Shown: piece by piece, positions 1 through 18,430 of the stretch | Numbering within the stretch: position 1 is the first letter of the stretch | Layout: each line of letters opens with the position of its first letter | DNA from: DASRDR01 sp963812945 [NCBI: uncultured Candidatus Rokubacteria bacterium] | GTDB taxonomy: Bacteria; Methylomirabilota; Methylomirabilia; Rokubacteriales | DNA: 64,000 bases | NCBI GenBank assembly: GCA_963812945.1 | Contig: CAWEXD010000008.1 | Coordinates: forward strand, 744,001-808,000 | Direction of reading: 5' to 3' | Notes under the pieces: generated by a model | What the model saw: the letters and a program-made list of their open reading frames with translations, nothing else | Database searches by the model: none | What the model was told of the DNA's origin: nothing | Position numbers and translations under genes: made by a program

Positions 1-44
1 ACATCGACGCGGTCCTCAAGCGCTGGCTGACCTTCCTCGGCTGA
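1..44 (+). CDS. C-terminal end of a truncated upstream gene, possibly the importer's solute-binding protein
   Basis: The window opens inside a reading frame that ends at a TGA at 42-44. The readable C-terminus is IDAVLKRWLTFLG. Such an end is common in spermidine/putrescine-type periplasmic binding proteins, and a permease gene of that importer class follows 87 bases later on the same strand. The identity is inferred from position only, because 13 residues are too few to recognise a family. Confidence 0.35.
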   Translation, partial: IDAVLKRWLTFLG

Positions 45-131
45 GCGCCCCTGTGAGCGAGCCGCCACCGGCGCTCCACCGGGAGCGGGGGGCGGGGATG
101 ATGGCGTGACGCTCGGCGCGGCTGACGGCGC

Positions 132-1019
132 GTGGAGGCCGGAACGGGCGGCATGAGGCCGGGGGTCTCCACTTGGCGGGCCCTCTGGCCCGTCCTGCCG
201 CTCCTCGGCTTCCTCCTCCTGGTCGTCGTCGAGCCGATCGCTCGCGTGCTTCTCTGGGGGCTCGCGCCGTCGATGGCGCCGACGGCGCCGACGATCGAGA
301 TTGGGACCCCGTGGCGCGAGCTCGTCGCCACGCCGCTCTACCGCGACGCGCTCCTCCGGACCTTCCGCCTGAGCCTCACGGTCACGCTCGCGTGTCTCGT
401 CCTCGGCTACCCGGTGGCCTACGTCCTCGCCCGCACCGGGGGCTGGCGCGGCCAGCTCCTCCTGGCCCTGGTCGTGGCGCCCTTCTGGATCAGCATCCTC
501 GCTCGGAGCTTCACGTGGATGGTCCTCCTCCAGCGCCAGGGCGTCGTCAACCGCATCCTGCTGGCCCTCGGTCTGGTGACGGAGCCCGTCCCGCTGATCT
601 ACAACGAGATCGGCGTCCACGTCGGGATGGTCCACGTCCTCTTGCCCTACATGATCCTGTCGCTCTACGGCGCCATGCGGGCGATCGACCCCGGTCTCTT
701 CCGCGCCGCCGCGGGGCTCGGCGCGACCGAATGGCAGGCCTTCCGGCGAGTCTGGTGGCCCCTGTCGCTGGCCGGCGTCGCCGCCGGGAGCCTCCTCCTC
801 TTCGTGGTGGCCCTAGGCTTCTTCGTCACGCCCGCGCTCCTCGGCGGCGGCAAGGTGACGACCCTCGCGATGCTGATCGAGGCCCACGTGAGCCAGGCGC
901 AGGACTGGCCGCTCGCCTCGGCGCTGGGTCTCGTGCTCTTGGTCGCCACGCTCCTCGCGCTCGTGCCGGCCCAGCGCGTGCTGCGGCTTGAGGCGCTGGT
1001 CGGAGCCGGGGGGCGCTGA
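132..1019 (+). CDS. ABC transporter permease, spermidine/putrescine type (PotB-like)
   Basis: Inner-membrane permease subunit of an ABC importer for polyamines or similar small organic cations. The protein has about six hydrophobic segments, beginning near residues 17-37 and 78-100. The cytoplasmic coupling (EAA) loop is at about residues 190-212 (RAAAGLGATEWQAF), where the ATPase docks. About 290 residues is normal for PotB. The start is uncertain: GTG at 132, or ATG at 153, which begins closer to the first membrane segment. The next gene starts one base after this stop, so the two are surely co-transcribed. The substrate is not readable from the permease. Confidence 0.85.
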   Translation: MEAGTGGMRPGVSTWRALWPVLPLLGFLLLVVVEPIARVLLWGLAPSMAPTAPTIEIGTPWRELVATPLYRDALLRTFRLSLTVTLACLVLGYPVAYVLARTGGWRGQLLLALVVAPFWISILARSFTWMVLLQRQGVVNRILLALGLVTEPVPLIYNEIGVHVGMVHVLLPYMILSLYGAMRAIDPGLFRAAAGLGATEWQAFRRVWWPLSLAGVAAGSLLLFVVALGFFVTPALLGGGKVTTLAMLIEAHVSQAQDWPLASALGLVLLVATLLALVPAQRVLRLEALVGAGGR

Positions 1020-1020
1020 C

Positions 1021-2976
1021 GTGGCGTTCCGTCTCCTGACGGGGAGCGCTGCCGGGCTCACGGTCGGCTTCCTGCTCCTGCCCATCCTGGCGCTGGTGCC
1101 GATGTCGCTCTCCCGCACGACCTGGCTTGCCTTCCCGCCCGACGCGCTGACGCTCGAGTGGTACGGGCGCGTACTCGGGGACCGCGAGTGGCGCGAAGCC
1201 GCGGGGACGAGCCTCGCGGTCGCCGCGCTGGCCGCGCTCCTCGCGGGCCTCCTCGGGACCCCGGCGGGCCTCGCCCTCGGCCGTGGCCGTGGGACACCGC
1301 GACTCCGTCGCGGCCTCCGGGGTGTGGTCCTCCTGCCGGTGATGGTGCCGGTCGTGCTGGTGGCGATCGCGCTCTACGCGGCCTTCGCCGCCGCCGGCCT
1401 CGGCGGGACGCTGGTCGCGCTGGTCCTTGCCCACACCGCCCTCGGGGTCCCGTACGTCGTGCTGAGCGTCGAGGCGGCGGCGCGGGGCCTCGACCCCAGG
1501 CTCGATCGCGCGGCGCGGGGTCTCGGGGCGACGGCGTGGCAGGCCCTCTGGCGCGTGACGCTGCCGCTCACGCGCCGGGGCCTCCTCGCGGGGATGCTCT
1601 TCGCGGCCATCGTCTCGTTCGACGAGGTGGTCGTCGCGCTCTTCGTCGGGGGCCCGACCACCACGACGCTCCCGCGGAAGATGTGGAGCACGATCACCCA
1701 GGACGAGTTCAACCCGCTCCTGACGGCGGTGGCGACGCTCCAGATGGTGGTGGCGCTGGGCCTGCTCGGCGTGGTCGCGTGGCTCGCCGCCATCGGGCGG
1801 CGCGGAGACGCCAGCGCGCCGAGTCCCGAGGCCGGCGAGGCGAAGGCGGTCGACGCGGACGCCGGCCCGCCCTCGTCGAGCGGCCTGCCGAAGCGGGTCG
1901 GGGCCCGCCTGGACCTCTCGGGCCTCACGAAGCGATTCGGCGCCGTGATGGCGGTCGACGAGCTTTCGCTCACGGTCGAGCCCGGCGAGCTCCTGACGCT
2001 CCTCGGCCCCTCGGGCTGCGGCAAGACGACCGCCCTGAACCTGATCGCCGGGTTCGAGGCGCCCGACGCCGGCGCGATCCGGATCGACGGGGTGGACGTG
2101 GCCGGGCTGCCGCCCCATCGTCGCGAGGTCGGCATGGTGTTCCAGGACTACGCGCTCTTTCCCCACCTGACGGTCCGCGAGAACGTGGCCTTCCCGCTTC
2201 GTGTGCGCGGGACCGTCCCGGTCGAGGTGGACGAGCGCGTGGAGGGGATGCTCGGGCTGGTGCGTTTGAGGGGGTACGGCGACCGGCTCCCGCGCCAGCT
2301 GTCGGGCGGCCAGCAGCAGCGCGTGGCGCTCGCCCGGGCGCTCGTCTACCGCCCGCGCGTCCTCCTGATGGACGAGCCGTTCGGGGCGCTCGACCGCGCG
2401 CTCCGCGAGACCATGCGCGCGGAGCTCCGCGAGCTCCAGCGGGCGCTCCGGATCACCGTGGTTCTGGTGACGCACGATCAGGACGAGGCGATGGACCTCT
2501 CCGACCGGGTCGCCGTCATGCGGGCGGGGCGTCTCCAGCAGGTGGCGCCGCCCCGCACGCTCTACGAGCGGCCGGTGAACGCGTTTGTCGCGGGCTTCGT
2601 CGGGGAGTCGAATCTCCTCGACGGCGTCGTCGTTTCCGTGGACGGAGAGGGTGCGATCGTCGAGACGGCCGGCGGGCGGCAGCTATCGGCCACGCGGGGC
2701 GATGTCCGGCCGGGCGACCGCGTGCTCGTGCTTCTCCGTCCCGATGCGGCGGAGCTTTCGGCGGAGGGCGTCGCGGACGCGGACGGCCTCGCGGGCGTCG
2801 TCGAGGAGGTGGCCGACCCGGGCCCGATCGTGCGCGGCCGCGTCCGCCTGGACGGCGGCGGGCGCGTGACGGTGACGCGGCCGCGGCACGCGCGTGGGCC
2901 CGCCCTCCGCCCGGGCGCGCGAGTCGGGCTGCGCTGGCCGCCCGAGGACGTGCGCCTCCTCGCCCCCGAGCCCTGA
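1021..2976 (+). CDS. ABC transporter permease-ATPase fusion (PotC-like plus PotA-like)
   Basis: One 651-residue protein carries both the second permease and the ATP-binding subunit of the importer. Residues about 1-255 are a PotC-type permease with an EAA loop (RAARGLGATAWQALW). A Pro/Ala/Ser-rich linker of about 40 residues follows. Residues about 300-651 are a PotA-type ATPase: Walker A GPSGCGKTT at 329-337, signature LSGGQQQR from 427, Walker B LLMDEP near 447, H-loop VTHDQDE, then a TOBE-like tail. GTG at 1021, one base after the previous stop, is preferred to an in-frame TTG at 988. No internal stop or frameshift separates the halves, so the fusion looks genuine. These subunits are usually separate proteins. 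Confidence 0.85.
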   Translation: MAFRLLTGSAAGLTVGFLLLPILALVPMSLSRTTWLAFPPDALTLEWYGRVLGDREWREAAGTSLAVAALAALLAGLLGTPAGLALGRGRGTPRLRRGLRGVVLLPVMVPVVLVAIALYAAFAAAGLGGTLVALVLAHTALGVPYVVLSVEAAARGLDPRLDRAARGLGATAWQALWRVTLPLTRRGLLAGMLFAAIVSFDEVVVALFVGGPTTTTLPRKMWSTITQDEFNPLLTAVATLQMVVALGLLGVVAWLAAIGRRGDASAPSPEAGEAKAVDADAGPPSSSGLPKRVGARLDLSGLTKRFGAVMAVDELSLTVEPGELLTLLGPSGCGKTTALNLIAGFEAPDAGAIRIDGVDVAGLPPHRREVGMVFQDYALFPHLTVRENVAFPLRVRGTVPVEVDERVEGMLGLVRLRGYGDRLPRQLSGGQQQRVALARALVYRPRVLLMDEPFGALDRALRETMRAELRELQRALRITVVLVTHDQDEAMDLSDRVAVMRAGRLQQVAPPRTLYERPVNAFVAGFVGESNLLDGVVVSVDGEGAIVETAGGRQLSATRGDVRPGDRVLVLLRPDAAELSAEGVADADGLAGVVEEVADPGPIVRGRVRLDGGGRVTVTRPRHARGPALRPGARVGLRWPPEDVRLLAPEP

Positions 2977-3091
2977 GCGCGGGCCCGACTCCGCTCGCTC
3001 GCCGTTCAAAGGGACGGTCGCCTCGCACGCGCGTCGCCGCGGCTGGCGCGTGGGACGCTCCTTGCCTTGACAGGCCCGTGACCGTTGTGTC

Positions 3092-4234
3092 ATGAGTGGC
3101 GCCACCGTGAAGATCCTCTACTGGACACAGCTCTTCCACCCCTACATCGGGGGCGTCGAGGTGCTGGGCGTCGAGTACGTCCGGGCGCTCCGGTCGCGCG
3201 GCCACGAGGTGGCGATCGTGACCTCGCACGGAAGCCTCGACCTTCCGGATGAGGACGTGATCGCGGGCGTGCCGGTGCATCGGTTTCGGCTCGCCGAAGC
3301 CCTCGAGCGCCGGGATCCGCGCGCCATCCTCGCCGCCGAGCGACGGCTCGGCGCGCTCAAGGGCGCATTCGCCCCGGACGTTGTGCATCTCCAGCTGACC
3401 GACGCGAGCGTTTTCTTCCACCTCCGGACCGCGGAGGCGCGCCCGGCGCGGACCGTCGTGGCGATCCGCGTGTCGTTGCCTGACGGCCGGCCGGCGGCCT
3501 CGAGCGTCCTCGGCCAGGCGCTGCGCGGGGCGGACTGGGTGACGGCCAACTCCAGCGCCGTGCTCGATCACGCCCGCCGCCTCATACCCGAGATCCGGGA
3601 GCGCTCGTCACTCATCTACAACGGGTTGCCCATGCCCTCGATCGCGCCGGCGCCCCTCCCGCTCGAGCCTCCGACGCTCCTCTGTCTCGGCCGGGTCGTC
3701 GACGACAAGGGGTTCGACCTGGCGATTCGCGCCCTCGCGGACATCCGCCGTCGCGTGCCGGCCACGCGCCTCGTCGTGGCAGGGGACGGGCCCGCGCGGG
3801 CTGCCCTTTCGGGTGAGGCGGCCGCGCTCGGTCTGGCCGATGCGGTCGAGTTTACCGGGTGGGTGCGGCCCGAGGGCGTCCCGTCGCTGCTGAACCGTGC
3901 CACCGTGGTCATCGTCCCGTCGCGCTGGCAGGAGGCCTTCGGGCTGGTCGCGCTCCAGGCTGCCCAGATGGCGCGGCCCGTCGTGGCCACGGACGTCGGC
4001 GGCCTGCCCGAGGTCGTCCTCGACGGATCGACGGGGCTGATCGTGCCTGCGGAGAGCCCGGCGGCGATCGCCGGGGCCGTCTCCGCACTGCTCGAAGACC
4101 CGGCGCGCGCCCGGGCGCTCGGGCTCGCCGCGCGCGCGCGAGCGGAGCGAACGTTCGGCTTCGGGCCCTTCGTGCGCGCCCACGAGCGCCTGTACGCCCG
4201 AGTCACGGGGAGACTCAGTCATGTCGCATCCTGA
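3092..4234 (+). CDS. Family 4 glycosyltransferase (GT-B fold)
   Basis: Predicted cytoplasmic retaining glycosyltransferase that moves a sugar from a nucleotide-sugar donor. The 380-residue protein begins with the GT4 acceptor-side motif (ILYWTQLFHPYIGGVEV, Gly-Gly loop). The donor-binding half carries LCLGRVVDDKGFDLAI near residue 195 and the E-x7-E segment EAFGLVALQAA near 282. It opens a seven-gene run and overlaps the next start by 14 bases, so translation is probably coupled. Its closest relative in the window is the GT4 gene at 6418, which shares the same opening motif and suggests local duplication. The acceptor and sugar are unknown. Confidence 0.85.
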   Translation: MSGATVKILYWTQLFHPYIGGVEVLGVEYVRALRSRGHEVAIVTSHGSLDLPDEDVIAGVPVHRFRLAEALERRDPRAILAAERRLGALKGAFAPDVVHLQLTDASVFFHLRTAEARPARTVVAIRVSLPDGRPAASSVLGQALRGADWVTANSSAVLDHARRLIPEIRERSSLIYNGLPMPSIAPAPLPLEPPTLLCLGRVVDDKGFDLAIRALADIRRRVPATRLVVAGDGPARAALSGEAAALGLADAVEFTGWVRPEGVPSLLNRATVVIVPSRWQEAFGLVALQAAQMARPVVATDVGGLPEVVLDGSTGLIVPAESPAAIAGAVSALLEDPARARALGLAARARAERTFGFGPFVRAHERLYARVTGRLSHVAS

Positions 4235-4658
4235 CCGCGTCCGTCCGAACGACGAGGAAGTGGCGTCGAGCGTGGTCGATGGGGAGGCGATCTTCATCAA
4301 CCTCTCGACGGGCGTCTACTACAGCCTCCGGGGGGCCGGCGCCGCGCTGTGGACGCTCCTCGCCGCGGGCCACTCCGTCGGGGTTGCGACCGAGCGGATC
4401 GCCTCGCTCGCCGGCGTGACGCCGGCCCAGGTCGCCGCCGATGGCGGCGCGCTGGTCGCGCGCCTGGTCGAGGAGCGCCTGGCGTTGCCCGTGGAGAGTG
4501 GCGCCTCCGAGCCCGCGGAGGTCCAGCTGGAAGCGCGATGGATCCTGCCCTACACGGCGCCCGCGCTGGAGACGTACAGTGACATGGCTGACCTGCTCGC
4601 CCTCGACCCTCCGATGCCCGGTCTCGGCACGATCCCCTGGGGCGACAGGGCGAGGTGA
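4221..4658 (+). CDS. PqqD-like protein (RRE-type fold), HprK-associated
   Basis: Small PqqD-related protein of 145 residues. The core at about 1-90 has the typical pattern of this fold: an early EVASSVVDGEAIFINLSTGVYYSL strand pair, GAGAALWTLL, then a winged-helix-like region ending VARLVEERL. In RiPP pathways such domains bind the leader peptide of a precursor. In some exopolysaccharide-linked loci they accompany an HprK-related protein, which is the case here. The C-terminal 50 residues form an unrecognised tail. The stop overlaps the next start as GTGA. No precursor peptide gene was found beside it, so its client is unknown. Confidence 0.75.
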   Translation: MSHPDRVRPNDEEVASSVVDGEAIFINLSTGVYYSLRGAGAALWTLLAAGHSVGVATERIASLAGVTPAQVAADGGALVARLVEERLALPVESGASEPAEVQLEARWILPYTAPALETYSDMADLLALDPPMPGLGTIPWGDRAR

Positions 4659-5692
4659 GGGGGCACGCGACCCTGGTTCTCGACGGGGGCCTCGGCGCCT
4701 CGGCCGCAACCGAGCCAGGGCATTCGGTCGAAACCGCGTACCGGGTGGCCGGCCTTGGCATCCGCATCGGCGTCGCCGGCCAGGCATTGGCCGCCGCGCT
4801 CCTCCCGGCGCTCGCCCATCTTCGAGTCGAGGATGACTTCCGAGCGCCGGATCTGAGCGTCTCGATCTGGGACGAGTCGGTGTCGAGCGCCGGCAGGCCC
4901 TGGCTTGGGCCGGACGATCGCGACGTCAGCCGTCCGCTCCTGGCGTCGCCGGACGGCCGGCGGTTCGTCCGCTCGGGCCCCGCCGGGGTCCTATGGCTGG
5001 ATCTCGACGCTTGCAGCCTGACGGGCTGGTTCGCCTCGGCGTCGGCCGTCCCTCCGACGGAGCGCGCCAAGCCGCTTGCTCGGCTCCTGGCCCCCTGGCT
5101 TCGTGACCACGGCCGCCAGATCGTGCACGCGGCGATGGTCGCCGACGGGGCTGCCGGCGTCCTGGTTGCCGGCCGTGGTGGAGCAGGGAAATCGACCGTG
5201 GCGCTTGCGGCGGGCCTCGCCGGCCTCGGCTACGTCGGGGACGACGTGGTGGTGCTGGAGGAGACCCGCAGCGCGGGCTTCGTCGGGCACAGCCTCTATG
5301 CGTCCTGCTTCATCGGGCGCTCGCACGTCGAGCGTTTCACGGCGCTCCCGTCCTCGGCGCGCGGTGTCCTGGATGCGGCGCGAGACAAGGTCGTGCTGCA
5401 GCTCGCGCACGTCCTGCCCGGCGGGGCCGTGCCGGCCGCGCCGGTGAGAGCGCTGCTCCTGCCGCGTGTCACGGCGGCGACCGCGGGCACGCTTCGCCCT
5501 GCGTCGGTGCCCGAGGCCCTCCGCGCCCTCGCGCCGAGCTCGCTCCTCGCGCACCCCGGTCAGGGCCAGGCCGAGCTCGACCGGCTGGAGCGTCTCGTCC
5601 GCGCGGTCCCCCGCTGGTGGCTCGACCTCGGCGGAGACGTGGGTGAGATCCCGGCCCTGGTCATGGGCGCGCTCGAGGAGGCAGGACGGTGA
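4655..5692 (+). CDS. HPr kinase-related P-loop protein
   Basis: Protein of 345 residues with a Walker A loop GRGGAGKST at residues 173-181 inside an HprK/P-type kinase-like C-terminal domain (VHAAMVADGAAGVLVAG before the loop, YVGDDVVVLEE after it). The N-terminal 150 residues are not recognisable. HprK-related proteins of this kind recur with PqqD-like and nucleotidyltransferase partners, as here, and are distinct from true PTS HPr kinase. In lasso-peptide loci a relative phosphorylates the peptide. Start is GTG overlapping the previous stop, and the end overlaps the next GTG, so it is translationally coupled on both sides. The substrate is unknown. Confidence 0.75.
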   Translation: MRGHATLVLDGGLGASAATEPGHSVETAYRVAGLGIRIGVAGQALAAALLPALAHLRVEDDFRAPDLSVSIWDESVSSAGRPWLGPDDRDVSRPLLASPDGRRFVRSGPAGVLWLDLDACSLTGWFASASAVPPTERAKPLARLLAPWLRDHGRQIVHAAMVADGAAGVLVAGRGGAGKSTVALAAGLAGLGYVGDDVVVLEETRSAGFVGHSLYASCFIGRSHVERFTALPSSARGVLDAARDKVVLQLAHVLPGGAVPAAPVRALLLPRVTAATAGTLRPASVPEALRALAPSSLLAHPGQGQAELDRLERLVRAVPRWWLDLGGDVGEIPALVMGALEEAGR

Positions 5693-6414
5693 CCACGCGG
5701 TCCCCGCTGGTCAGCTGCGTGATCCCGGTGCGGGACGGCGCACGGTTCCTCCGAGAGGCGATCGACAGCGCGCTCGGCCAGTCCCATCGACCCGTCGAGG
5801 TGATCGTCTCCGACGACGGGTCCCGTGACACGACACCCGACATCGCGCGCGGCTATGGTCCAGCGGTGGTCTATCTTTCCGGACCGGCGGCGGGCGCGCC
5901 CGCCGCGCGCAACCGCGGCCTCCGGGCCGCTCGCGGCGAGCTCATCGCGTTCCTCGACGCCGACGACCGCTGGCATCCCGGAAAGCTGACGCTCCAGGTC
6001 GCGCGCTTCGCCCGGGATCCCGCGCTGGCCCTGTGCCTCGCTCAGGTGCGGCCGCTCTGGGCGCCCGAGCTTGGCGAGACCCGGCTTCGTGTTGTGCGCG
6101 ATCGGCTGGTCGTCGTCGTCACCGCGTGCCTCCTGAGCACGGCCGTAGCTCGGAAAACGCTGTTCGACGCCATCGGGGTGTTCGACGTGACGCGCCCGCT
6201 GGGGGACGACACCGACTGGTTCCGTCGGGTCATCGACGCGGGCGTTCCCGTGGAGATCCTGCCGGACGTCCTCGTGGACCGGCGCGTGCACCCGGACAGC
6301 CTCACCCACGGTACGAACGTGTTCAGCCGCGAGCATCTGCTCACCCACGTGCGAGGGCTCGTGGAGGGGCGGCGCCGCGCCGGGGATCGCCGTAGCGGCG
6401 GCTGCCAGGCCTGA
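5689..6414 (+). CDS. Family 2 glycosyltransferase (GT-A fold)
   Basis: Predicted cytoplasmic glycosyltransferase, 241 residues. It has the GT2 N-terminus VIPVRDGARFLREAIDSAL, the nucleotide-binding VSDDGSRD segment and the metal-binding FLDADD at residues 88-93. A later GDDTDWFRR (E/DDxxW-type motif) marks the acceptor or catalytic region. There is no membrane segment, so it is a soluble enzyme rather than a polymer synthase. It starts with GTG overlapping the preceding stop. It is clearly paralogous to the GT2 gene at 7547 (same FLDADDRWHP motif), so the operon seems to have arisen partly by duplication. Confidence 0.85.
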   Translation: MTTRSPLVSCVIPVRDGARFLREAIDSALGQSHRPVEVIVSDDGSRDTTPDIARGYGPAVVYLSGPAAGAPAARNRGLRAARGELIAFLDADDRWHPGKLTLQVARFARDPALALCLAQVRPLWAPELGETRLRVVRDRLVVVVTACLLSTAVARKTLFDAIGVFDVTRPLGDDTDWFRRVIDAGVPVEILPDVLVDRRVHPDSLTHGTNVFSREHLLTHVRGLVEGRRRAGDRRSGGCQA

Positions 6415-6417
6415 CGA

Positions 6418-7533
6418 ATGCGCGTCCTGGTCTGGTCGCAATACTCCTGGCCCTATATCGGGGGAACCGAGATTCAGGCCATGCGTCTCTGGCCCGAGCT
6501 GCGGGCGAGAGACCACGAGGTGACCATCGTCTCGGGCCAGGCTCACGACGCCCAGGCGGGCACGGAGACCGTGGGCGGTGTCCCGGTCCACCGGCTGCCC
6601 CTCCGGGAGGCGCTCGCGGCGGGCGACGCCCGGCGCGTGGCCGCCCTGTGCCGGGACGTCGGGGCGCTCAGGCGGCGCGTGGCGCCCGACGTCGTCGTGG
6701 TCACGTCGCTCGGCCCCCTCGACCTCTTCCTCCACCAGAGCGCCCGGAGCCACCCGGCTCCACTCGTCGTCACCCCCCAGCAGGACATTCCCGCGCGGCT
6801 CCTCGGTCCGACAGCCCTTCCGGGCCGCACGCTCCGGGCGGCCGCGTGGGTCGTGTGCTGCTCGGCGTCCATTCGCGCAGATCTCTGCGCGGTGGTGCCG
6901 GAGCTGGGCGCGCGCAGCTCCGTCGTCTACCACGGCGTGCCGCTCCCGCCGGCCTCCGGCGCGCCGCCGCTCGCGCCGCCCCGGCTGCTCGGCATCGGGC
7001 GCCTGCTCCGGTTCAAGGGTTTCGACGTGGCTCTCCACGCGCTCCGCCGCGTGCGAGACCGCGTGCCGGAGGCGCGCCTCACGCTGGCCGGCGACGGCCC
7101 CGAGCGCCTCGCGCTGGAGGAGCTGGCGAGGCAGCTCGGCGTGAGGGACGCCGTGGACTTCGTCGGCTGGGTACATCCCGAGCAGGTCGCGGCGCTGATG
7201 GCGACGGCGACGCTCGTCCTGATGCCGTCGCGCTGGGAGGGACTCCCCCTGGTTGCCCTCGAGGCCCAGGCGGCCGGGCGTCCGGTCGTCGCGAGTCGCG
7301 TGGGCGGGCTTCCCGAGGGGGTGGCGGACGGCGAGACGGGACGGCTGGTGCCGCCGGATTCTCCGGCCGCCCTGGCGGACGCCGTGCTCGCGCTCCTGGC
7401 GACGCCGACGGCGCTCGCCCGCATGGCCCGGGCCGCACGCGACCGCGCCGTTCGCGTGTTCGGGGTGGCCCGCTGCGTGGACGACTACGAGGCGCTCTTG
7501 ACCGAGGTCTCGCGCCGGGCGACCGCCGCGTGA
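6418..7533 (+). CDS. Family 4 glycosyltransferase, paralogue of the 3092 gene
   Basis: GT-B glycosyltransferase of 371 residues. It shares with the gene at 3092 the opening VWSQYSWPYIGGTEIQ motif, the IGRLLRFKGFDVAL donor-site entry and the SRWEGLPLVALEAQAAG E-x7-E segment at about residues 270-290. It begins three bases after the preceding GT2 stop. The alternation GT4, GT2, GT4, GT2 suggests stepwise assembly of a short heteroglycan, but neither donor nor acceptor can be deduced. A soluble cytoplasmic enzyme is expected. Confidence 0.85.
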   Translation: MRVLVWSQYSWPYIGGTEIQAMRLWPELRARDHEVTIVSGQAHDAQAGTETVGGVPVHRLPLREALAAGDARRVAALCRDVGALRRRVAPDVVVVTSLGPLDLFLHQSARSHPAPLVVTPQQDIPARLLGPTALPGRTLRAAAWVVCCSASIRADLCAVVPELGARSSVVYHGVPLPPASGAPPLAPPRLLGIGRLLRFKGFDVALHALRRVRDRVPEARLTLAGDGPERLALEELARQLGVRDAVDFVGWVHPEQVAALMATATLVLMPSRWEGLPLVALEAQAAGRPVVASRVGGLPEGVADGETGRLVPPDSPAALADAVLALLATPTALARMARAARDRAVRVFGVARCVDDYEALLTEVSRRATAA

Positions 7534-7546
7534 GCGGGCCCACGTG

Positions 7547-8254
7547 ATGCAGGCCCCGCTCGTCAGCTGCATCGTCCCGGTCCACGACGCCGAGCGGTAT
7601 CTCGCCGAGGCGCTCGACAGCGTGCTCCGCCAGACGTACCTCGAGATCGATGTGATCGTGGCCGACGACGGCTCGACGGACGCGACCCGGGCCATCGCCG
7701 AGCGCCGCGGCCCCCGCGTGCGGTGGGTGAGCCAGCCGACGGCCGGCCCGGCGGCGACGCGAAACCTCGGCCTTCGGGCGAGCCGCGGCGAGCTCGTCGC
7801 CTTTCTCGACGCCGACGACCGCTGGCATCCCGAGAAGCTCGCCCGCCAGGTGGCGCGGCTCGCCGCTCGTCCGGAGATCGACGTGTCGCTGACTCACGTC
7901 CAGCTCTTCTGGGACGACCCCGAGTGCGAGGAGGCGCGCCGCTACCGTGGCCACCCCCGCGCGGGCGGCGTCCCCGGCTTCGCGACGACGACGCTGCTCG
8001 CCCGGCGGCGCGCGTTCGACGTCGTCGGGCTCCTCGACGCCGGCCTCTGGTTCGCCGACTCGGTCGACTGGTTTCTCCGCGCCAGGGAGCGAGGGCTCGT
8101 GCTCGAGGTCCTGCCCGAGGTGCTGGCGTACCACCGGATGCACGCGGGGAACCTCACCCGCCGGCGCGAGGGGGCGAGCCGCGAGGAGTTCCTCCGAGTC
8201 GTCCGGGCCGGCCTCGTCCGGCGGCGTGCCCTCCGCGGGCCGTCGCGGGGCTAG
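7547..8254 (+). CDS. Family 2 glycosyltransferase, paralogue of the 5689 gene
   Basis: Soluble GT2 enzyme of about 235 residues. It has CIVPVHDAERYLAEALDSVL at the N-terminus, VADDGSTDATR for nucleotide binding, FLDADDRWHPEKL as the metal-binding motif, and SVDWFLRARE near residue 172 in the catalytic region. Two adjacent starts exist, GTG at 7544 and ATG at 7547. The ATG is preferred. It follows the GT4 gene by about 13 bases and precedes the nucleotidyltransferase by three, so it belongs to the same operon. Confidence 0.85.
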   Translation: MQAPLVSCIVPVHDAERYLAEALDSVLRQTYLEIDVIVADDGSTDATRAIAERRGPRVRWVSQPTAGPAATRNLGLRASRGELVAFLDADDRWHPEKLARQVARLAARPEIDVSLTHVQLFWDDPECEEARRYRGHPRAGGVPGFATTTLLARRRAFDVVGLLDAGLWFADSVDWFLRARERGLVLEVLPEVLAYHRMHAGNLTRRREGASREEFLRVVRAGLVRRRALRGPSRG

Positions 8255-8257
8255 TGC

Positions 8258-9253
8258 GTGGAGGCGTCGCTCGCCGACCGCCTGGCCGCCATGCTCCCCA
8301 CTCCGACCGAGACGCTCCTCCTGCGGGGCGCGCTGCTCGGGCACGCTGACGCCTGGGAGGCCTGGGTCCGGGCGGTGGGCGATCCCGCGCGCGGGATCGG
8401 GGCGAACCGGGACGGAGTCCGGCGTCTGGCGCCGCTGCTCGCCCGGGGAATCGGCCGGCTCCCTGAATTTGGTCCCCCGGCCGCGCTGACTGCGCTCCGG
8501 GTGGCCGATCGGATGACGGAGAGCCGGAGCCGCACGTTCCGGGAGCTCGCCGGGTCAGCCCTGGCCGTGCTCCAGGGCGCCCGCGTGCCCTACGTCGTGC
8601 TGGGAGGCACTGCGCTCGCCGAGACGGTCTACCCCGTGCCGTCGCTCCGGCTCTGCCACGACGTCGATCTCCTGGTGCCCCGCTCGGCCTGGCGTGCCGC
8701 GACCCGGGCGCTGGCCCAACCGGGGTTCCAGCCCGTGGCCTGGTGGGCGCGCCCACGGTGGGAGGACGGGCGAGTGCTGGTCCACTCGTCGGGGCTGCCG
8801 ATCGTGCTTCACGAGCGCCTCTTGACGGCGCCGTTCGACCGACCGCCGATCGAGGAGACGGAAGTGCGGGAGGTGGCCGGGGTCGACTCGCCGGTGCTCG
8901 CGGCCGAGGCCGCGCTCGTGCGCGGGTCGTGCCATGCCGTCTCGACGCCCGCGTACCCGGGCGTGCAGTGGATGGCCGACGCCTGGCACCTGCTCAGGCG
9001 CTCTCTTTCGCTCGACTGGGATCGCCTGCTCGCCCAGGCGAGCGACGAGGCGCGGGCCGTGACCCTCGGCGGCGTGCTGCGCCGTCTCGTCCGGGACCTG
9101 GGCGCGGAGGTGCCAGACGAGGTCCTCCGGAAGCTCGAGCGCCCGCCGGCGTCTTCCTGCCGGGTGACGGTGCGGGGCGCGCCGCTCCCGTTGAGAGTGG
9201 CTCGCGGGATCATGGCTCGAGCCGCGGCGCTCCGCCGGCGCGCGTCGCGCTGA
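8258..9253 (+). CDS. Nucleotidyltransferase-fold protein (NTP_transf_5 type)
   Basis: Protein of 331 residues with the hallmark of the uncharacterised NTP_transf_5 family: YVVLGGTALAETVYP followed by LCHDVDLLVPRS at about residues 111-145, i.e. the GG...DhD nucleotidyltransferase active-site pattern. Members commonly sit beside PqqD-like, HprK-like and lasso-peptide or exopolysaccharide genes, which matches this operon. The N-terminal 100 residues and the helical C-terminal half are not individually recognised. GTG start three bases after the previous stop. It is the last gene of the run. The reaction, possibly nucleotidyl transfer to a small molecule or peptide, is unproven. Confidence 0.75.
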   Translation: MEASLADRLAAMLPTPTETLLLRGALLGHADAWEAWVRAVGDPARGIGANRDGVRRLAPLLARGIGRLPEFGPPAALTALRVADRMTESRSRTFRELAGSALAVLQGARVPYVVLGGTALAETVYPVPSLRLCHDVDLLVPRSAWRAATRALAQPGFQPVAWWARPRWEDGRVLVHSSGLPIVLHERLLTAPFDRPPIEETEVREVAGVDSPVLAAEAALVRGSCHAVSTPAYPGVQWMADAWHLLRRSLSLDWDRLLAQASDEARAVTLGGVLRRLVRDLGAEVPDEVLRKLERPPASSCRVTVRGAPLPLRVARGIMARAAALRRRASR

Positions 9254-9293
9254 CACGACACCGTCGGCGCCACGCCAAGTCGTGGGGTCGGGA

Positions 9294-9322
9294 TTGCGCC
9301 CCGGTACGTCGGTTGCTAGCGT
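9294..9322 (+). promoter_or_regulatory. Candidate promoter giving a leaderless transcript for the M48-like lipoprotein gene
   Basis: TTGCGC at 9294-9299 and TAGCGT at 9317-9322 are 17 bases apart, and the GTG start at 9329 lies 6 bases beyond the -10 box. Transcription would begin at or next to the start codon. There is no Shine-Dalgarno sequence. Prediction from spacing only. Confidence 0.4.
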
Positions 9323-9328
9323 GAGGCT

Positions 9329-10075
9329 GTGACTGTCCGGACACGGCCGCTCGTCCTCGGGGCCGCGCTGGCCGTCTTGACCGCCTGCGCCGCGGCGCCC
9401 GAGTCGGTCAAGCCGCGGGATCTCACCCCCGCCGAGCGGGACAGCCTCTCCCAGACTCTGGAGCCCATCCTCACCGCCGCCGGTCTCTGGCGCGGGCCGG
9501 CCGACGGGTGTGCCGCGGCGTTTGGTGTCGTAGAAGGGGAGCCGATCGTGATCCTCGTCACCCCGCATGCGCCGTGCCGGGTCAAGCTGGTCCTCACGCA
9601 GGGCGCGCTGACGAAGCTCGATCGCGAGACCCTCCGGGTCGTGCTGGCCCACGACCTCGCGCACATGCAGCTCGGGCATCCGGAGGCGCGCCAGCAGCGG
9701 GAGGAGGAGCGGAAGAAGACCGAGAAGCAGGTCGGCACGGCCACGGGCGCGGCGAAGAAGGCCGCGAGCTTCATCCCCGGCGTGGGCGGGCTCGTCGGGA
9801 AGGGGATCGGCACGGCCAGGAAGGCCGCGACCGCGGTGATGGAGGCGCACGGGAATCCCTACCTTCCGGAAGAAGAGCACGCGGCGGATGCGCTCACCAC
9901 GACCTACCTGAGCCAGGCCGAGCCGAGCGGGTGCGCCCTCGCGACGCTCCTCCGGGAGAGGCTCCGCAGCTCGTCGGAGGACGCCTGGACGCTCTGGGTC
10001 CACCAGCACCCGGTTTTCGCCGAGCGGGTCGCCGCCGTCGCCGCGCCGTGCCCCCACGTCGGGGTCAGACTTTGA
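9329..10075 (+). CDS. M48-like metallopeptidase-fold lipoprotein with altered active site
   Basis: Lipoprotein of 248 residues: hydrophobic signal peptide ending in the lipobox LTAC (Cys20). A zinc-protease helix VVLAHDLAHMQLGH lies at residues 105-117. The M48 consensus HExxH here reads HDLAH (108-112), so the catalytic Glu is Asp. The third-ligand motif ExxAD is kept (E183-HAAD187). A Gly/Ala/Lys-rich insert (about 134-170, GVGGLVGKGIGTARK) separates the two motifs. It is probably periplasmic, anchored to the membrane. An E to D change often cripples such enzymes, so activity is doubtful. The last residues and stop lie inside a palindromic repeat. Confidence 0.65.
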   Translation: MTVRTRPLVLGAALAVLTACAAAPESVKPRDLTPAERDSLSQTLEPILTAAGLWRGPADGCAAAFGVVEGEPIVILVTPHAPCRVKLVLTQGALTKLDRETLRVVLAHDLAHMQLGHPEARQQREEERKKTEKQVGTATGAAKKAASFIPGVGGLVGKGIGTARKAATAVMEAHGNPYLPEEEHAADALTTTYLSQAEPSGCALATLLRERLRSSSEDAWTLWVHQHPVFAERVAAVAAPCPHVGVRL

Positions 10076-10132
10076 CTTCGGGACAATTCCCGAAGGGCGG
10101 CCCAAACTGTCCGGAAGTCAAAGTCTGACCCC
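10061..10132. repeat. 72-bp palindromic repeat, copy 1
   Basis: Two 25-base arms (10061-10085 and 10108-10132) form an inverted repeat with one mismatch around a 22-base centre. Each arm begins or ends with GGGGTCAGACTTTGACTTC or its complement. The left arm supplies the stop codon of the lipoprotein gene, and the right arm abuts the GTG start of the next gene. Further copies occur at 16144 and 18290. No transposase is nearby, so it resembles a REP/MITE-like non-autonomous element. Confidence 0.85.
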
Positions 10133-11023
10133 GTGCCGATCGAGTGCCGGTTTCTCGCGTCCTCCGATGCATATGAGCGCACGGTGACCGCCTGGGTCGA
10201 CCGAGCCGAGGGCGCGTTCCTCGAGCTCCGCGCGCGCCTCTCGGACGGGCAAGTCGACCTCGAGGTTGGCCTCGTCGCCGAGCCGTCGCCGAGCTATCGG
10301 CTTTCTCGGGCGTGGGCGACGCCGCGGTCCGAGGCGACTCGACAGCTCTGCGGCTCCCTCCTGGAGGCGTACGAGGGCGTCGGGGCTCTTCGCGTCGTCG
10401 CCGGATTCCGCAGGGAGGTCGCGGGGCTCCTCGGCGGGCATCCGGCTGCTGACTACCTGCTCGACGCGACCCTCGAGGCCGCCCGCCTGTCGCGGCAGGT
10501 GACGCAGACCGACCTCCCCCTCGGGCCGCCCCTCGGCCCGGCGGAGTTCCACAGGCTCGACCTCGAGGCGTGGCCGGAGCTCGTCGACCTCTGCTTCACG
10601 TACCGGCGCGAGTCGGCCGCCCTCTTCACGGAACGCTCGGTGCGCACGCCGGCGATCACCGCGATGTACGCGTCGCCGCCCGGTCAGAAGCTCGTGTTCC
10701 ATCGCTACAAGCGGAGTCGGCTCGAGCGGGCAGGGGGCACGCTCTCCCTCTACCAGTCGATGTTCGACCAGGTGCACGGGTTCGAGCTCTGGTACGACGT
10801 GGACGGGCCGAGCCAGACAGTCGCGGATGCGAGGCTCATCACGCCCCGGTTGCCCTACATGGGGATTTGCGAGGAGCCCCAGCGGCGGGTCCGGGAGATG
10901 GTGGGCGTCACGCTCGACGCCGCGTGGCCCGCGGTCGTGCGCGCCAGGCTCGGTGGCCGCCAGGGCTGCTTCCAGCTGACGGACCTGACGAGCGACATCT
11001 TCCGTCTGCTGAACCCAACCTGA
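10133..11023 (+). CDS. Uncharacterised protein with two DUF2889-like segments
   Basis: Protein of 296 residues without signal peptide or membrane segment; function unknown. It shows two similar segments. One at about 60-125 contains ATPRSEATRQLCGSLLEAY, FRREVAGLLGGH and a following LLDAT. The other at about 240-296 contains RLPYMGICEEPQRRVREM, VRARLGGRQGC and FQLTDLTSD. The order (small residue, Cys, amphipathic helix, Arg-x-Leu-Gly-Gly, then a helix) recalls the DUF2889 family, which has no known activity. The assignment is tentative. The GTG start directly adjoins palindromic repeat copy 1, leaving no room for a ribosome-binding site outside the repeat. Confidence 0.6.
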   Translation: MPIECRFLASSDAYERTVTAWVDRAEGAFLELRARLSDGQVDLEVGLVAEPSPSYRLSRAWATPRSEATRQLCGSLLEAYEGVGALRVVAGFRREVAGLLGGHPAADYLLDATLEAARLSRQVTQTDLPLGPPLGPAEFHRLDLEAWPELVDLCFTYRRESAALFTERSVRTPAITAMYASPPGQKLVFHRYKRSRLERAGGTLSLYQSMFDQVHGFELWYDVDGPSQTVADARLITPRLPYMGICEEPQRRVREMVGVTLDAAWPAVVRARLGGRQGCFQLTDLTSDIFRLLNPT

Positions 11024-11042
11024 CACCCTGTCGACGGTCGGC

Positions 11043-12398
11043 TCAGGGGCTCGGCCGGGCCTCCGTCCCGAGGAGCGCCCTCACGGCCTGAAGCGCCGCG
11101 CGGTAGGCGCCCGGGTCAGGGCCGGAGGTCCCTCCCCGGACCACGCACGGGTCGTCGACGCTGAACGGCTGCCCCGTGTCCCGGTTCACGAGGTGACCCT
11201 CCGGGCGCTCTTCCCAGAAGCAGCGGCTGGCATTCTGCTCGCGGGGGTTGCGACGGGCCGTCCCGGCGCCCGGACGATCGAAGCCGTGGTGAGCCCCGGC
11301 GTACTCGGTGATCTGCGCGTCGGCGCCGGCTCGTCGGAGCCGCTCCACGTAGGCGCGACAGAGCTCGAGGGGGGCGAGGTCGTCGGCCGATCCGTGGAAG
11401 AGCCGGATCGGGCGGTCGCTCACCGTGAGGTCGCCCACGTACGTGTAGTAGCAGGGAGGGTAGAAGGCGATGTGGTGCGCGAACCGCGCGCCGGCCGGCC
11501 CGTACAGGCGCTGGAACCGCGTCAGCGCCGCGTACAGCGCGACGGCTCCGCCCTTGGAGAACCCCATGACGGCGATCCGCCCCGGGTCGATCCGGGGGTG
11601 CGTGGCCAGTAGCTCGAGGGCCCGGTAGGCATCGCCGACCATCGCCTGACTGCTGAGCTGCGCCTGGTCTTCCGCGGTGAACGTGATGCCACGGCCGGTG
11701 AAGCTGTCGAGGACGAACGTCGCGGCGCCGGCCTGGCGAAGCTCGTCGGCCCACCGGTCCTCGCGCGCGCCCACCCCGCCGGAGCCGTGAACGAGCACGA
11801 CCGCCGGGCTCCGCTCGACCCGCCCCGGGGGAAGCTCCAGGTCCCCCCAGATCAGGCTGGTGGTGGGCGGCGTGATCGCCTGGAGGAAGTTCGATGTCGT
11901 CGGCGTGGTGGTCCGGACGCCGATCCGGCCGATCGGCCCGGCCGCGAGCGTCGTGTGGAGCGCGGGGGGCGGACAGCCGTCCACGTAGCGCACCGACGTC
12001 GCGCTCGTGACTTCCCGCCCGTCGGCCAGCACGACGCGGAGCGTGTATCGGATCTCGCCCGGCGCCTTCCGCGGGGCGCCCCAGTGCAGGAGACGGCTCT
12101 CGAACCGGCCCTGGTCGGCGGTGGCGCGCTGGAGGTCGTCTCTGGTCGGGGTCAAGACGGAGCGGATTGGCTGCTCGCCGGGCCCGTCCCAGAGCCCCTG
12201 CACTTCGACGTCCTTCACGGCGGCCAGGCCGCCGGGAAGCCCCCGGTACCAGACCCCCCACCGGAACGTGTCCCGCAGGCACAGCTGGGGCGGATCGAAC
12301 CGGAACTGCTCGAGAGCGGGCTGCGCTTCCACGGCGAGCGGGGCGGCCAAGCAGGCGAGGCTCAGGATGCCGGTGAGAACAGGCCGTCGAGCCTTCAT
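11043..12398 (-). CDS. Secreted dienelactone hydrolase-family alpha/beta hydrolase
   Basis: Exported protein of 451 residues with an N-terminal signal peptide (LTGILSLACLAAPLAVEAQ). Residues about 25-160 form a beta-rich N-terminal domain of unknown role. The hydrolase domain follows: VLVHGSGGVGAREDRW (oxyanion region), nucleophile elbow GFSKGGA (Ser), an Asp region around FHGSADDLAPLELC, and the catalytic His in GAHHGFD. It probably hydrolyses an ester or lactone in the periplasm. It converges on the DUF2889-like gene with only 19 bases between the stops. An aggggg sequence ahead of the ATG may be the ribosome site. The substrate is unknown. Confidence 0.75.
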   Translation of the reverse strand: MKARRPVLTGILSLACLAAPLAVEAQPALEQFRFDPPQLCLRDTFRWGVWYRGLPGGLAAVKDVEVQGLWDGPGEQPIRSVLTPTRDDLQRATADQGRFESRLLHWGAPRKAPGEIRYTLRVVLADGREVTSATSVRYVDGCPPPALHTTLAAGPIGRIGVRTTTPTTSNFLQAITPPTTSLIWGDLELPPGRVERSPAVVLVHGSGGVGAREDRWADELRQAGAATFVLDSFTGRGITFTAEDQAQLSSQAMVGDAYRALELLATHPRIDPGRIAVMGFSKGGAVALYAALTRFQRLYGPAGARFAHHIAFYPPCYYTYVGDLTVSDRPIRLFHGSADDLAPLELCRAYVERLRRAGADAQITEYAGAHHGFDRPGAGTARRNPREQNASRCFWEERPEGHLVNRDTGQPFSVDDPCVVRGGTSGPDPGAYRAALQAVRALLGTEARPSP

Positions 12399-18289: not shown

Positions 18290-18360
18290 GGGGTCAGACT
18301 TTGACTTCCGGACAATGCCTCGCTCGAACCGAAAATGTCCCGAAGTCAAAGTCTGACCCC
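18290..18360. repeat. 71-bp palindromic repeat, copy 3
   Basis: Arms at 18290-18314 and 18336-18360 are inverted repeats with one mismatch around a 21-base centre. The left edge is one base from the RluA-type ATG on the - strand. It lies between two divergent genes. Confidence 0.85.
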
Positions 18361-18387
18361 GATGGTATTCTCCGCCGCTCGACGAAC

Positions 18388-18412
18388 TGTTTGGAAGTCA
18401 AGGCCTGACCCC
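18388..18412. repeat. Degenerate solo arm of the palindromic repeat
   Basis: A 25-base stretch matches the right arm of the repeat family at 21 of 25 positions (reads GAAGTCAAGGCCTGACCCC at its 3' end). No partner arm is present other than those of copy 3, 27 bases away. It looks like the remnant of another insertion. Confidence 0.6.
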
Positions 18413-18417
18413 GAGGG

Positions 18418-18423
18418 TATCAT
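18418..18423 (+). promoter_or_regulatory. -10-like box for a possible leaderless start at 18431
   Basis: TATCAT lies 7 bases ahead of the ATG at 18431, directly after the degenerate repeat arm. No Shine-Dalgarno sequence is present. No convincing -35 was found. Confidence 0.3.
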
Positions 18424-18430
18424 CGCGCGG

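What the first reader, a model, noticed from the sequence alone, without database searches (positions are those of the whole stretch)
3092..9253. Seven-gene glycosyltransferase operon with PqqD, HprK-related and NTP_transf_5 proteins but no precursor peptide
Seen: GT4, PqqD-like, HprK-like P-loop protein, GT2, GT4, GT2 and NTP_transf_5-type gene, mostly separated by 0-13 bases or overlapping. Known: PqqD-like, HprK-related and NTP_transf_5 genes co-occur in lasso-peptide tailoring loci and in exopolysaccharide-linked clusters (HprK-related system), whose function is not settled. Inference: this run could make a glycosylated, phosphorylated or nucleotidylated product, with the PqqD-like protein as carrier or recognition domain. 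No precursor, asparagine-synthase-like cyclase, peptidase, flippase or polymerase was seen from 3.1 to 9.3 kb. The nearby short gap (2977-3091) showed no credible small gene.
Basis: partly seen in the sequence, partly recalled or inferred. Interest (0 to 1): 0.7.

Follow-up and report, generated by a model that had tools for sequence, protein, structure and literature searches.

The report
Peptide-binding protein carrying its own leader
A seven-gene sugar-transfer operon contains a peptide-binding protein that carries, fused to its own end, the kind of leader peptide such proteins normally grab from a separate molecule, followed by a short stretch that is strongly conserved in relatives from many bacterial phyla.

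Summary
The seven genes are there as described. The key correction concerns 'no precursor'. The last ~35 codons of the PqqD-like gene encode a conserved tail: a lasso-type leader motif (YxxPxL, aa 111-116), then a payload (DMxDLLxLDP...W). A scan of 84,980 species genomes for the payload's DNA pattern gave 113 stretches; 112 are tails of this kind, with a PqqD/RRE domain in the same frame in 109, cut off in two, not found in one. Sampling by the HprK-like kinase instead found the tail at 30 of 32 strong loci. AlphaFold docks the leader back on its own RRE domain (pLDDT 97). The residue that grips the leader tyrosine in a solved complex (position 74) covaries with that tyrosine: D74 goes with Y111 in 27 of 28, other residues in 14 of 82; further sequences agree (3/3 against 2/26). 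Kinase, NTP_transf_5 and glycosyltransferases recur; no lasso cyclase was seen in the run. The closest published systems, paeninodin/pseudomycoidin tailoring and LPPs, use separate precursors. What is modified is unproven: the tail has no conserved Ser/Thr.

The parts
3092..4234 (+). GT4-family glycosyltransferase (first gene of the run)
   Evidence: Pfam Glycos_transf_1 1.2e-39; a GT4 lies upstream of the PqqD+tail gene in L034, L097, L069, L022 and others
4221..4658 (+). PqqD-like RRE protein with fused leader-like tail (145 aa)
   Evidence: PqqD Pfam hit; AlphaFold model mean pLDDT 90.8; closest folds are TbiB1/TfuB1 lasso RREs solved with leader peptides
4233..4490 (+). RRE (winged-helix) domain, aa 5-90; D74 (4440-4442) is the leader-tyrosine gripping position
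   Evidence: VIA-align Z 12.1 to 5v1u (rmsd 1.4, 84 aligned) and 5v1v (2.3, 88), 11.4 to 6jx3 (1.8, 85), model residues 5-93; D74 aligns with LppB D70 and PbaB1 Q79 (alignment, numbering from PMC13381572)
4491..4547 (+). variable Ala/Pro-rich linker, aa 91-109
   Evidence: the stretch aa 89-110 is 16-28 residues long (median 22) in 125 aligned proteins with P114; composition A 17%, P 15%
4551..4568 (+). leader-like motif YTAPAL, aa 111-116 (YxxPxL)
   Evidence: P114 in 105 of 110, F/Y/W at 111 in 103 of 110, neither fixed by the scan pattern; block 111-120 mean pLDDT 97, strand 117-119 directly after L116; 111 covaries with 74
4575..4640 (+). conserved payload YSDMADLLALDPPMPGLGTIPW, aa 119-140
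   Evidence: in 29 relatives reached through the kinase and kept for RRE and tail profile hits: D121 29, D129 29, P130 28, W140 28 of 29
4655..5692 (+). HprK/PEPCK-fold P-loop kinase-like protein; Walker A at 5171-5194
   Evidence: AlphaFold pLDDT 92, Foldseek to PEPCK (1.8e-09) and HprK (about 1e-06); H158, K179, S/T180, D196, D197 conserved, region aligned with L. casei HprK
5689..6414 (+). GT2-family glycosyltransferase
   Evidence: Pfam 3.7e-28
6418..7533 (+). GT4-family glycosyltransferase
   Evidence: Pfam 4.1e-40
7544..8254 (+). GT2-family glycosyltransferase
   Evidence: Pfam 4.8e-32
8258..9253 (+). NTP_transf_5 nucleotidyltransferase-fold protein
   Evidence: Pfam 4.4e-26; G117 31/33, D135 27/33, D137 30/33, D241 33/33 in relatives

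Best explanation
This is a phosphate/sugar tailoring cassette related to paeninodin/pseudomycoidin tailoring and to LPPs, in which the RiPP recognition element and its leader peptide are one polypeptide. Well supported by computation: the YxxPxL segment of the tail folds back across a flexible linker and fills the leader groove of its own PqqD/RRE domain, so that the conserved payload (DMxDLLxLDP...W) is permanently presented. Inferred: the payload is handed to the HprK-like kinase, the NTP_transf_5 protein and the glycosyltransferases encoded beside it, either as the acceptor on which phosphate-linked sugar is built (slightly preferred) or as the docking handle that gathers these enzymes. Not shown: any chemistry, the modified residue, the product, and whether the peptide is ever released.
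For: Tail: 113 pattern stretches; 111 have a stop 19-43 residues after the motif start, L095 runs off its contig; RRE domain in the same frame in 109 of 112. Sampling by kinase, not by motif: 30 of 32 strong loci (E <= 1e-45) have the tail; the 2 misses are a 5.3-kb contig and a contig that begins 381 bases before the kinase match. AlphaFold: leader block pLDDT 97, strand at the three residues after L116, as in the PbaB1 complex, where the three residues after the motif Leu extend the sheet (PMC13381572 section 8, 84). Fold: best matches are lasso RREs solved with leaders. Covariation: D74 with Y111 27/28 against 14/82, p 2e-14; in tails of the DPIH type 9/10 against 13/81, p 5e-6, the best of 86 domain positions; independent pairs 7 for, 0 against, 6 tied (RRE tree) and 6, 0, 3 (kinase tree); later sequences 3/3 against 2/26, p 0.0027. 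Position 74 aligns with the Asp that holds the leader Tyr in LppB. Linker 16-28 residues. Partners: HprK 77, NTP_transf_5 58, any GT 92 of 112. Literature: in pseudomycoidin the HprK homologue phosphorylates and the nucleotidyltransferase puts hexose on that phosphate (PMC8498205 passages).
Against: The payload has no conserved Ser or Thr: 21 of 112 tails have none after 'DM', in 20 of them with the stop seen, so a phospho-Ser acceptor in the tail is doubtful. It is conserved where LPP precursors have highly variable C termini. L035 has the tail in an uncut 99-residue frame with no RRE domain found in the three forward frames, so fusion is not without exception (or the assembly is faulty). In 9 of 29 later relatives the leader Pro is lost while the payload stays. 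Six of 112 loci show none of kinase, NTP_transf_5 or GT. Docking is predicted, not measured; no coordinates were available, so contacts were not inspected. Tail type segregates as strongly with a GT2 control as with the kinase, so no specific payload-kinase co-evolution is shown. D74-Y111 ranked fifth among domain-tail pairs by mutual information, and I tested it after seeing that ranking. No leader peptidase was recognised.
Confidence: 0.6

Rival explanations
1. Adaptor model: the cis-bound tail is never modified. It turns the RRE protein into a fixed scaffold whose conserved payload docks the kinase, NTP_transf_5 and glycosyltransferases that act on a separate glycan or lipid-linked sugar.
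For: Payload conserved across phyla, and better than the leader in the later 29 relatives; no conserved hydroxyl residue; glycosyltransferase-rich loci. In LppA the part after the RRE motif makes no obvious contact with LppB and is suggested to meet the modifying enzymes (PMC13381572 section 8).
Against: Kinase plus nucleotidyltransferase is the pair that acts on the peptide itself in pseudomycoidin; no co-evolution specific to an enzyme was seen.
Confidence: 0.33
2. Plug model: the cis leader is a displaceable lid that keeps the RRE closed until a separate, unrecognised precursor competes it out.
For: The groove is predicted occupied in cis; lasso and LPP RREs bind separate precursors.
Against: No recurring separate small ORF with [YW]xxPx[LIVFA]: 16 matches left in 113 loci after dropping those under longer ORFs, none alike by eye (a Phe variant was not searched). 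A lid would not need a conserved 20-residue payload after the leader.
Confidence: 0.1
3. Ordinary polysaccharide glycosyltransferase operon with a vestigial PqqD-like protein and an incidental P-loop protein.
For: Four of seven genes are common GT2/GT4 enzymes.
Against: Conservation of tail, kinase active-site columns and NTase columns across phyla and recurrent co-occurrence.
Confidence: 0.05

Closest known systems
Linear polyphosphorylated peptides (LPPs; LppA/B/K/S/D/N), Paenibacillus, PMC13381572 (sections 6, 7, 8, 12 read)
   Same: Discrete lasso-type RRE, HprK-like kinase, NTP transferase, no macrolactam cyclase, [Y/W]xxPx[L..] leader, set among glycosyltransferases; an MsbA-type transporter also occurs in 29 of our 112 loci, not in the window run
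   Different: LPP precursors are separate genes with variable C-termini, cut by an SpI-like peptidase. Here the leader is fused to the RRE, the payload is conserved, and no peptidase was recognised. The paper calls LPPs restricted to Bacillota
Paeninodin and pseudomycoidin lasso peptide tailoring (PMC8498205, passages read)
   Same: HPr kinase homologue plus nucleotidyltransferase plus PqqD-type B1 protein
   Different: No Asn-synthase-like cyclase, B2 peptidase or separate precursor in the window run; neither enzyme among the 25 families listed for 96 of 285 unlabelled neighbour ORFs
TbiB1 / TfuB1 (lasso B1 RREs; 5V1U, 5V1V, 6JX3)
   Same: Same fold (Z 11.4-12.1) and the same Asp at the tyrosine-gripping position
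   Different: Leader supplied in trans; the window protein has a C-terminal tail beyond the aligned domain
NCBI HPr-rel-A system (TIGR04352 kinase, TIGR04353 PqqD_rel_X)
   Same: Kinase plus PqqD-type pair by name
   Different: Window kinase 23.2 bits against a cut-off of 200; 56 of 59 kinases hit TIGR04352, best E 2.5e-14; 5 of 103 PqqD rows hit TIGR04353, best E 3.4e-06, the window's not

Membership tests
Lasso peptide cluster | RRE (B1) of lasso type | tested here: met
   Z 12.1, rmsd 1.4, 84 aligned to TbiB1; profile hit E 6.6e-20 to TbiB1
Lasso peptide cluster | Asn-synthase-like macrolactam cyclase (C) and B2 peptidase in the cluster | tested here: not met
   None among the seven genes of the run or the three flanking genes scanned; not among the 25 families listed for 96 neighbour ORFs in relatives (rarer families not listed)
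Lasso peptide cluster | Separate precursor peptide gene | tested here: not met
   No credible small ORF with the motif in window 1-12000, none recurring in 113 loci
LPP RiPP family | RRE + HprK-like kinase + NTP transferase | tested here: met
LPP RiPP family | Separate LppA precursor with YxxPxVLxHQxIxFETxxS | tested here: not met
   Leader is fused and continues as DMxDLLxLDP
LPP RiPP family | SpI-type signal peptidase (LppS) in the cluster | tested here: not met
   No such gene in 3092-9253
LPP RiPP family | Kinase phosphorylates a core Ser | not testable with these tools
   21 of 112 tails have no Ser/Thr after 'DM'; chemistry untested
PTS HPr(Ser) kinase | Full-length HprK/P (TIGR00679 cut-off 240 bits) | tested here: not met
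   22.1 bits
HprK/PEPCK-fold kinases | P-loop, His and Asp-Asp active-site columns | tested here: met
   H158 60/61, K179 60/60, S/T180 60/60, D196 58/61, D197 60/61; region aligned to 1jb1
HPr-rel-A system (TIGR04352/TIGR04353) | Window proteins score above curated cut-offs | tested here: not met
   Kinase 23.2 bits against 200; PqqD-like protein no TIGR04353 hit at E 0.001

The most novel reading that the evidence does not exclude
Probability: 0.3. Interest if true: 0.88.

Novelty: new variant of a known kind. Interest (0 to 1): 0.68.

Why it matters
RREs are known as docks for separate leader peptides. A family spread over many phyla in which the leader is built into the dock, with matching changes at the tyrosine-gripping residue, gives a ready-made RRE-leader pair and may explain why some 'HprK + PqqD + NTP_transf_5' loci among glycosyltransferases seem to lack a precursor. 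It makes the open question of what HprK-like kinases and NTP_transf_5 proteins do in such loci directly testable by mass spectrometry on one small protein. The payload motif can be used to find and name these clusters.

Tried and rejected
Kinase protein as query in genome contigs and viral contigs: no relative. PqqD-like and kinase proteins against plasmids: no match. The tail against plasmids gave Rhizobium hits H1-H4 at E 1-4; reading one of them, L001, showed the match on the strand opposite a 223-aa ORF, so I took it as chance. The payload pattern gave 0 hits in viral contigs. One pattern hit, L010, is not of this family: the motif lies inside a 510-residue frame. Tail against PDB sequences: one match at E 0.9, taken as chance. 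Payload-enzyme co-evolution: tail type segregates equally with a GT2 control, so it shows only that the cassette travels together. Rfam: nothing in the window.

Weaker kinase relatives (E 9e-31 to 3e-36, 12 loci): tail in 5, an RRE without tail in 5, neither in 2. So the tail marks the subfamily, not every HprK-like/RRE pair. Corrected on checking: L035, first counted as cut, is not cut; no RRE domain was found there in the three forward frames.

No lasso cyclase or B2 peptidase was searched for by structure or by a dedicated profile.
Full report
Observation. The seven genes are at the stated places on the plus strand, overlapping or nearly touching. The P-loop protein is not an ordinary HPr kinase.

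The missed feature. The PqqD-like protein is 145 aa, but the PqqD match ends at residue 87. The remaining tail reads ...YTAPALETYSDMADLLALDPPMPGLGTIPW.... I recognised YxxPxL as the lasso leader motif (recalled, later confirmed in PMC13381572) and recalled, without a source, a related motif in database PqqD proteins. I turned the second half of the tail into a DNA pattern that leaves the YxxPxL part free, and scanned 84,980 species genomes. 113 stretches matched. One, L010, is unrelated. Of the other 112, 111 have a stop 19-43 residues after the motif start and L095 runs off its contig. An RRE domain is seen in the same frame in 109; L055 and L060 are cut upstream by the fetched stretch; L035 is an uncut 99-residue frame in which no RRE domain was found in the three forward frames. 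The pattern fixes some residues, so only the rest count as evidence: P114 in 105 of 110, F/Y/W at 111 in 103 of 110, L116 in 90 of 110, W140 in 101 of 103. Record titles, which for metagenome bins can be wrong, name Acidobacteria, Gemmatimonadetes, Chloroflexi, Planctomycetes, Nitrospirota, Verrucomicrobia, Bacteroidetes, Actinomycetota, a Phormidesmis-like cyanobacterium, proteobacterial classes and others. Two tail types exist: DPIH-type (92 of 112) and DPP-type (20 of 112; the window's).

Sampling without the motif. An alignment of 59 kinases (the window's and 58 from these loci; A2) was searched in genomes drawn from the phyla of six centre genomes: 9 of 149, 4 of 148, 7 of 249, 8 of 251, 6 of 349 and 13 of 244 genomes had a match at E 1e-30 (these totals include the centre genomes). 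Setting aside loci already known in the centre genomes, 32 loci have E of 1e-45 or better; 30 carry the tail, 29 of them seen fused to an RRE domain (in L155 that part is cut by the fetched end). In some it lies several kb from the kinase, as in L215. The two without are on a 5.3-kb contig (L209) and on a contig that begins 381 bases before the kinase match (L213). Five of the 30 repeat loci of the pattern set. Of 12 weaker kinase loci, 5 carry the tail, all in 1.7-1.9 Mb genomes drawn from the phylum of the Phormidesmis-like genome; that these are picocyanobacteria is my inference from size. This gave 29 distinct proteins outside the pattern set, kept because they hit both an RRE and a tail profile at 1e-4 (so the next figures are conditional on that): D121 and D129 in 29, P130 and W140 in 28, H133 in 27, the leader's P114 in 20. 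The payload is thus kept better than the leader.

Does the tail sit in its own groove? AlphaFold of the window protein with a 103-row alignment gives mean pLDDT 90.8; block 111-120 averages 97, with a strand at 117-119, a helix 122-128 in a block averaging 75, and a C-terminus near 64. The best structural matches of the domain are TbiB1 and TfuB1, lasso RREs solved with leader peptides (Z 12.1, 12.1, 11.4; rmsd 1.4, 2.3, 1.8; model residues 5-93). In the published PbaB1 complex the three residues after the motif leucine extend the RRE sheet (PMC13381572, section 8 read); the model's strand is the three residues after L116. In LppB the leader tyrosine is hydrogen-bonded by D70. Aligning the A1 profile with the LppB chain (9x8z) puts that Asp at window position 74, checked by the Phe four residues on; TbiB1 and TfuB1 have Asp there, PbaB1 Gln. 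Across 110 sequences D74 goes with Y111 in 27 of 28, any other residue with Y111 in 14 of 82 (p 2e-14); within DPIH-type tails 9 of 10 against 13 of 81 (p 5e-6), the best of 86 domain positions, the next at 1.6e-3. I looked at this pair after a mutual-information ranking in which it was fifth; three of the four above it pair S17 with columns that separate the two tail types, the other is E85-T118. On trees, independent pairs are 7 for, 0 against, 6 tied (RRE tree) and 6, 0, 3 (kinase tree). In the 29 further proteins the result repeats: 3 of 3 against 2 of 26 (one gap at 74 counted as not Asp), p 0.0027; limited to the 20 with P114, 3 of 3 against 2 of 17, p 0.009. The linker is A/P-rich and 16-28 residues long in 125 proteins. 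I take cis docking as likely (about 0.85, judgement).

Partners. Within at most 8 kb, 77 of 112 loci have the kinase, 58 NTP_transf_5, 92 a glycosyltransferase, 29 an MsbA-type ABC transporter, 36 the first three together and 6 none of those three; many loci are cut by contig or stretch ends, and only 11 have 3.5 kb on both sides (9 with GT, 9 kinase, 6 NTP_transf_5, 4 ABC). The kinase model has the PEPCK/HprK fold, with H158, K179, S/T180, D196 and D197 conserved and the region aligned with L. casei HprK. NTP_transf_5 keeps G117, D135 and D137 in most relatives. Lasso work gives these two a role: the HprK homologue phosphorylates the C-terminal Ser and the nucleotidyltransferase adds hexose to the phosphate (PMC8498205, passages); in LPPs the kinase puts several phosphates on a core Ser, and deleting the NTP transferase changed nothing in the heterologous host (PMC13381572, section 7).

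Mechanism. I favour a self-presenting RRE: the leader in cis, the payload offered to the kinase, NTP_transf_5 and glycosyltransferases. Whether the payload is acceptor or docking handle is open. Against acceptor: 21 of 112 tails have no Ser/Thr after 'DM' (20 with the stop seen). For acceptor: the pair's known chemistry on peptides. Tail type segregates with the kinase, NTP_transf_5 and RRE, but equally with a GT2 control, so it shows joint inheritance only.

Novelty. The motif strings were found in no paper of the held library apart from one unrelated chance hit, and searches for RRE-precursor fusions and for HprK/PqqD/polysaccharide combinations listed nothing that describes this by title or abstract start. 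RRE-Finder mentions RRE-glycosyltransferase fusions and clusters without probable precursors, and the word kinase does not occur in its main text (PMC7470986, passages). The B1 paper PMC5067487 was seen in passages. The window's two proteins reach no NCBIfam cut-off; for their relatives only E-values were listed, the best 2.5e-14 for a kinase model and 3e-19 for a lasso PqqD model. I rate it a new variant of a known kind.

Noticed in passing
window 988-2976: One ORF reads as a spermidine/putrescine-type permease fused to its ATPase (BPD_transp_1 + ABC_tran + TOBE_2), directly upstream of the operon.
   Followed up: no
L201, L202, L204, L205, L206 (wider: L222, L223, L225): 1.7-1.9 Mb genomes from the phylum of a Phormidesmis-like cyanobacterium carry kinase, RRE+tail and, where the wider stretch was read, NTP_transf_5 and GTs; payload ADPIHE(V/I)K..xGW with further residues after it, and mostly no YxxPxL.
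   Followed up: partly
L191, L192, L193: Version in the phylum of Rhodoplanes with a degenerate leader motif but intact VDPIHEVEEPLGWP payload.
   Followed up: partly
L034, L060, L103 (one genome, G001): Three separate RRE+tail loci in one genome.
   Followed up: no
L035, motif near base 1763 of the reoriented locus: Payload and leader motif in an uncut 99-residue frame without a recognisable RRE domain: a possible free-standing tail or an assembly fault.
   Followed up: partly
window 9329-10075 and 18335-19747: Two M48-type peptidase genes, one immediately downstream of the operon; a possible but untested releasing protease.
   Followed up: no
L216, L217, L218, L221: RRE proteins without tail in the neighbourhood of weaker HprK relatives; in L218 a bacterial sugar transferase and an ABC exporter are close by.
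   Followed up: partly
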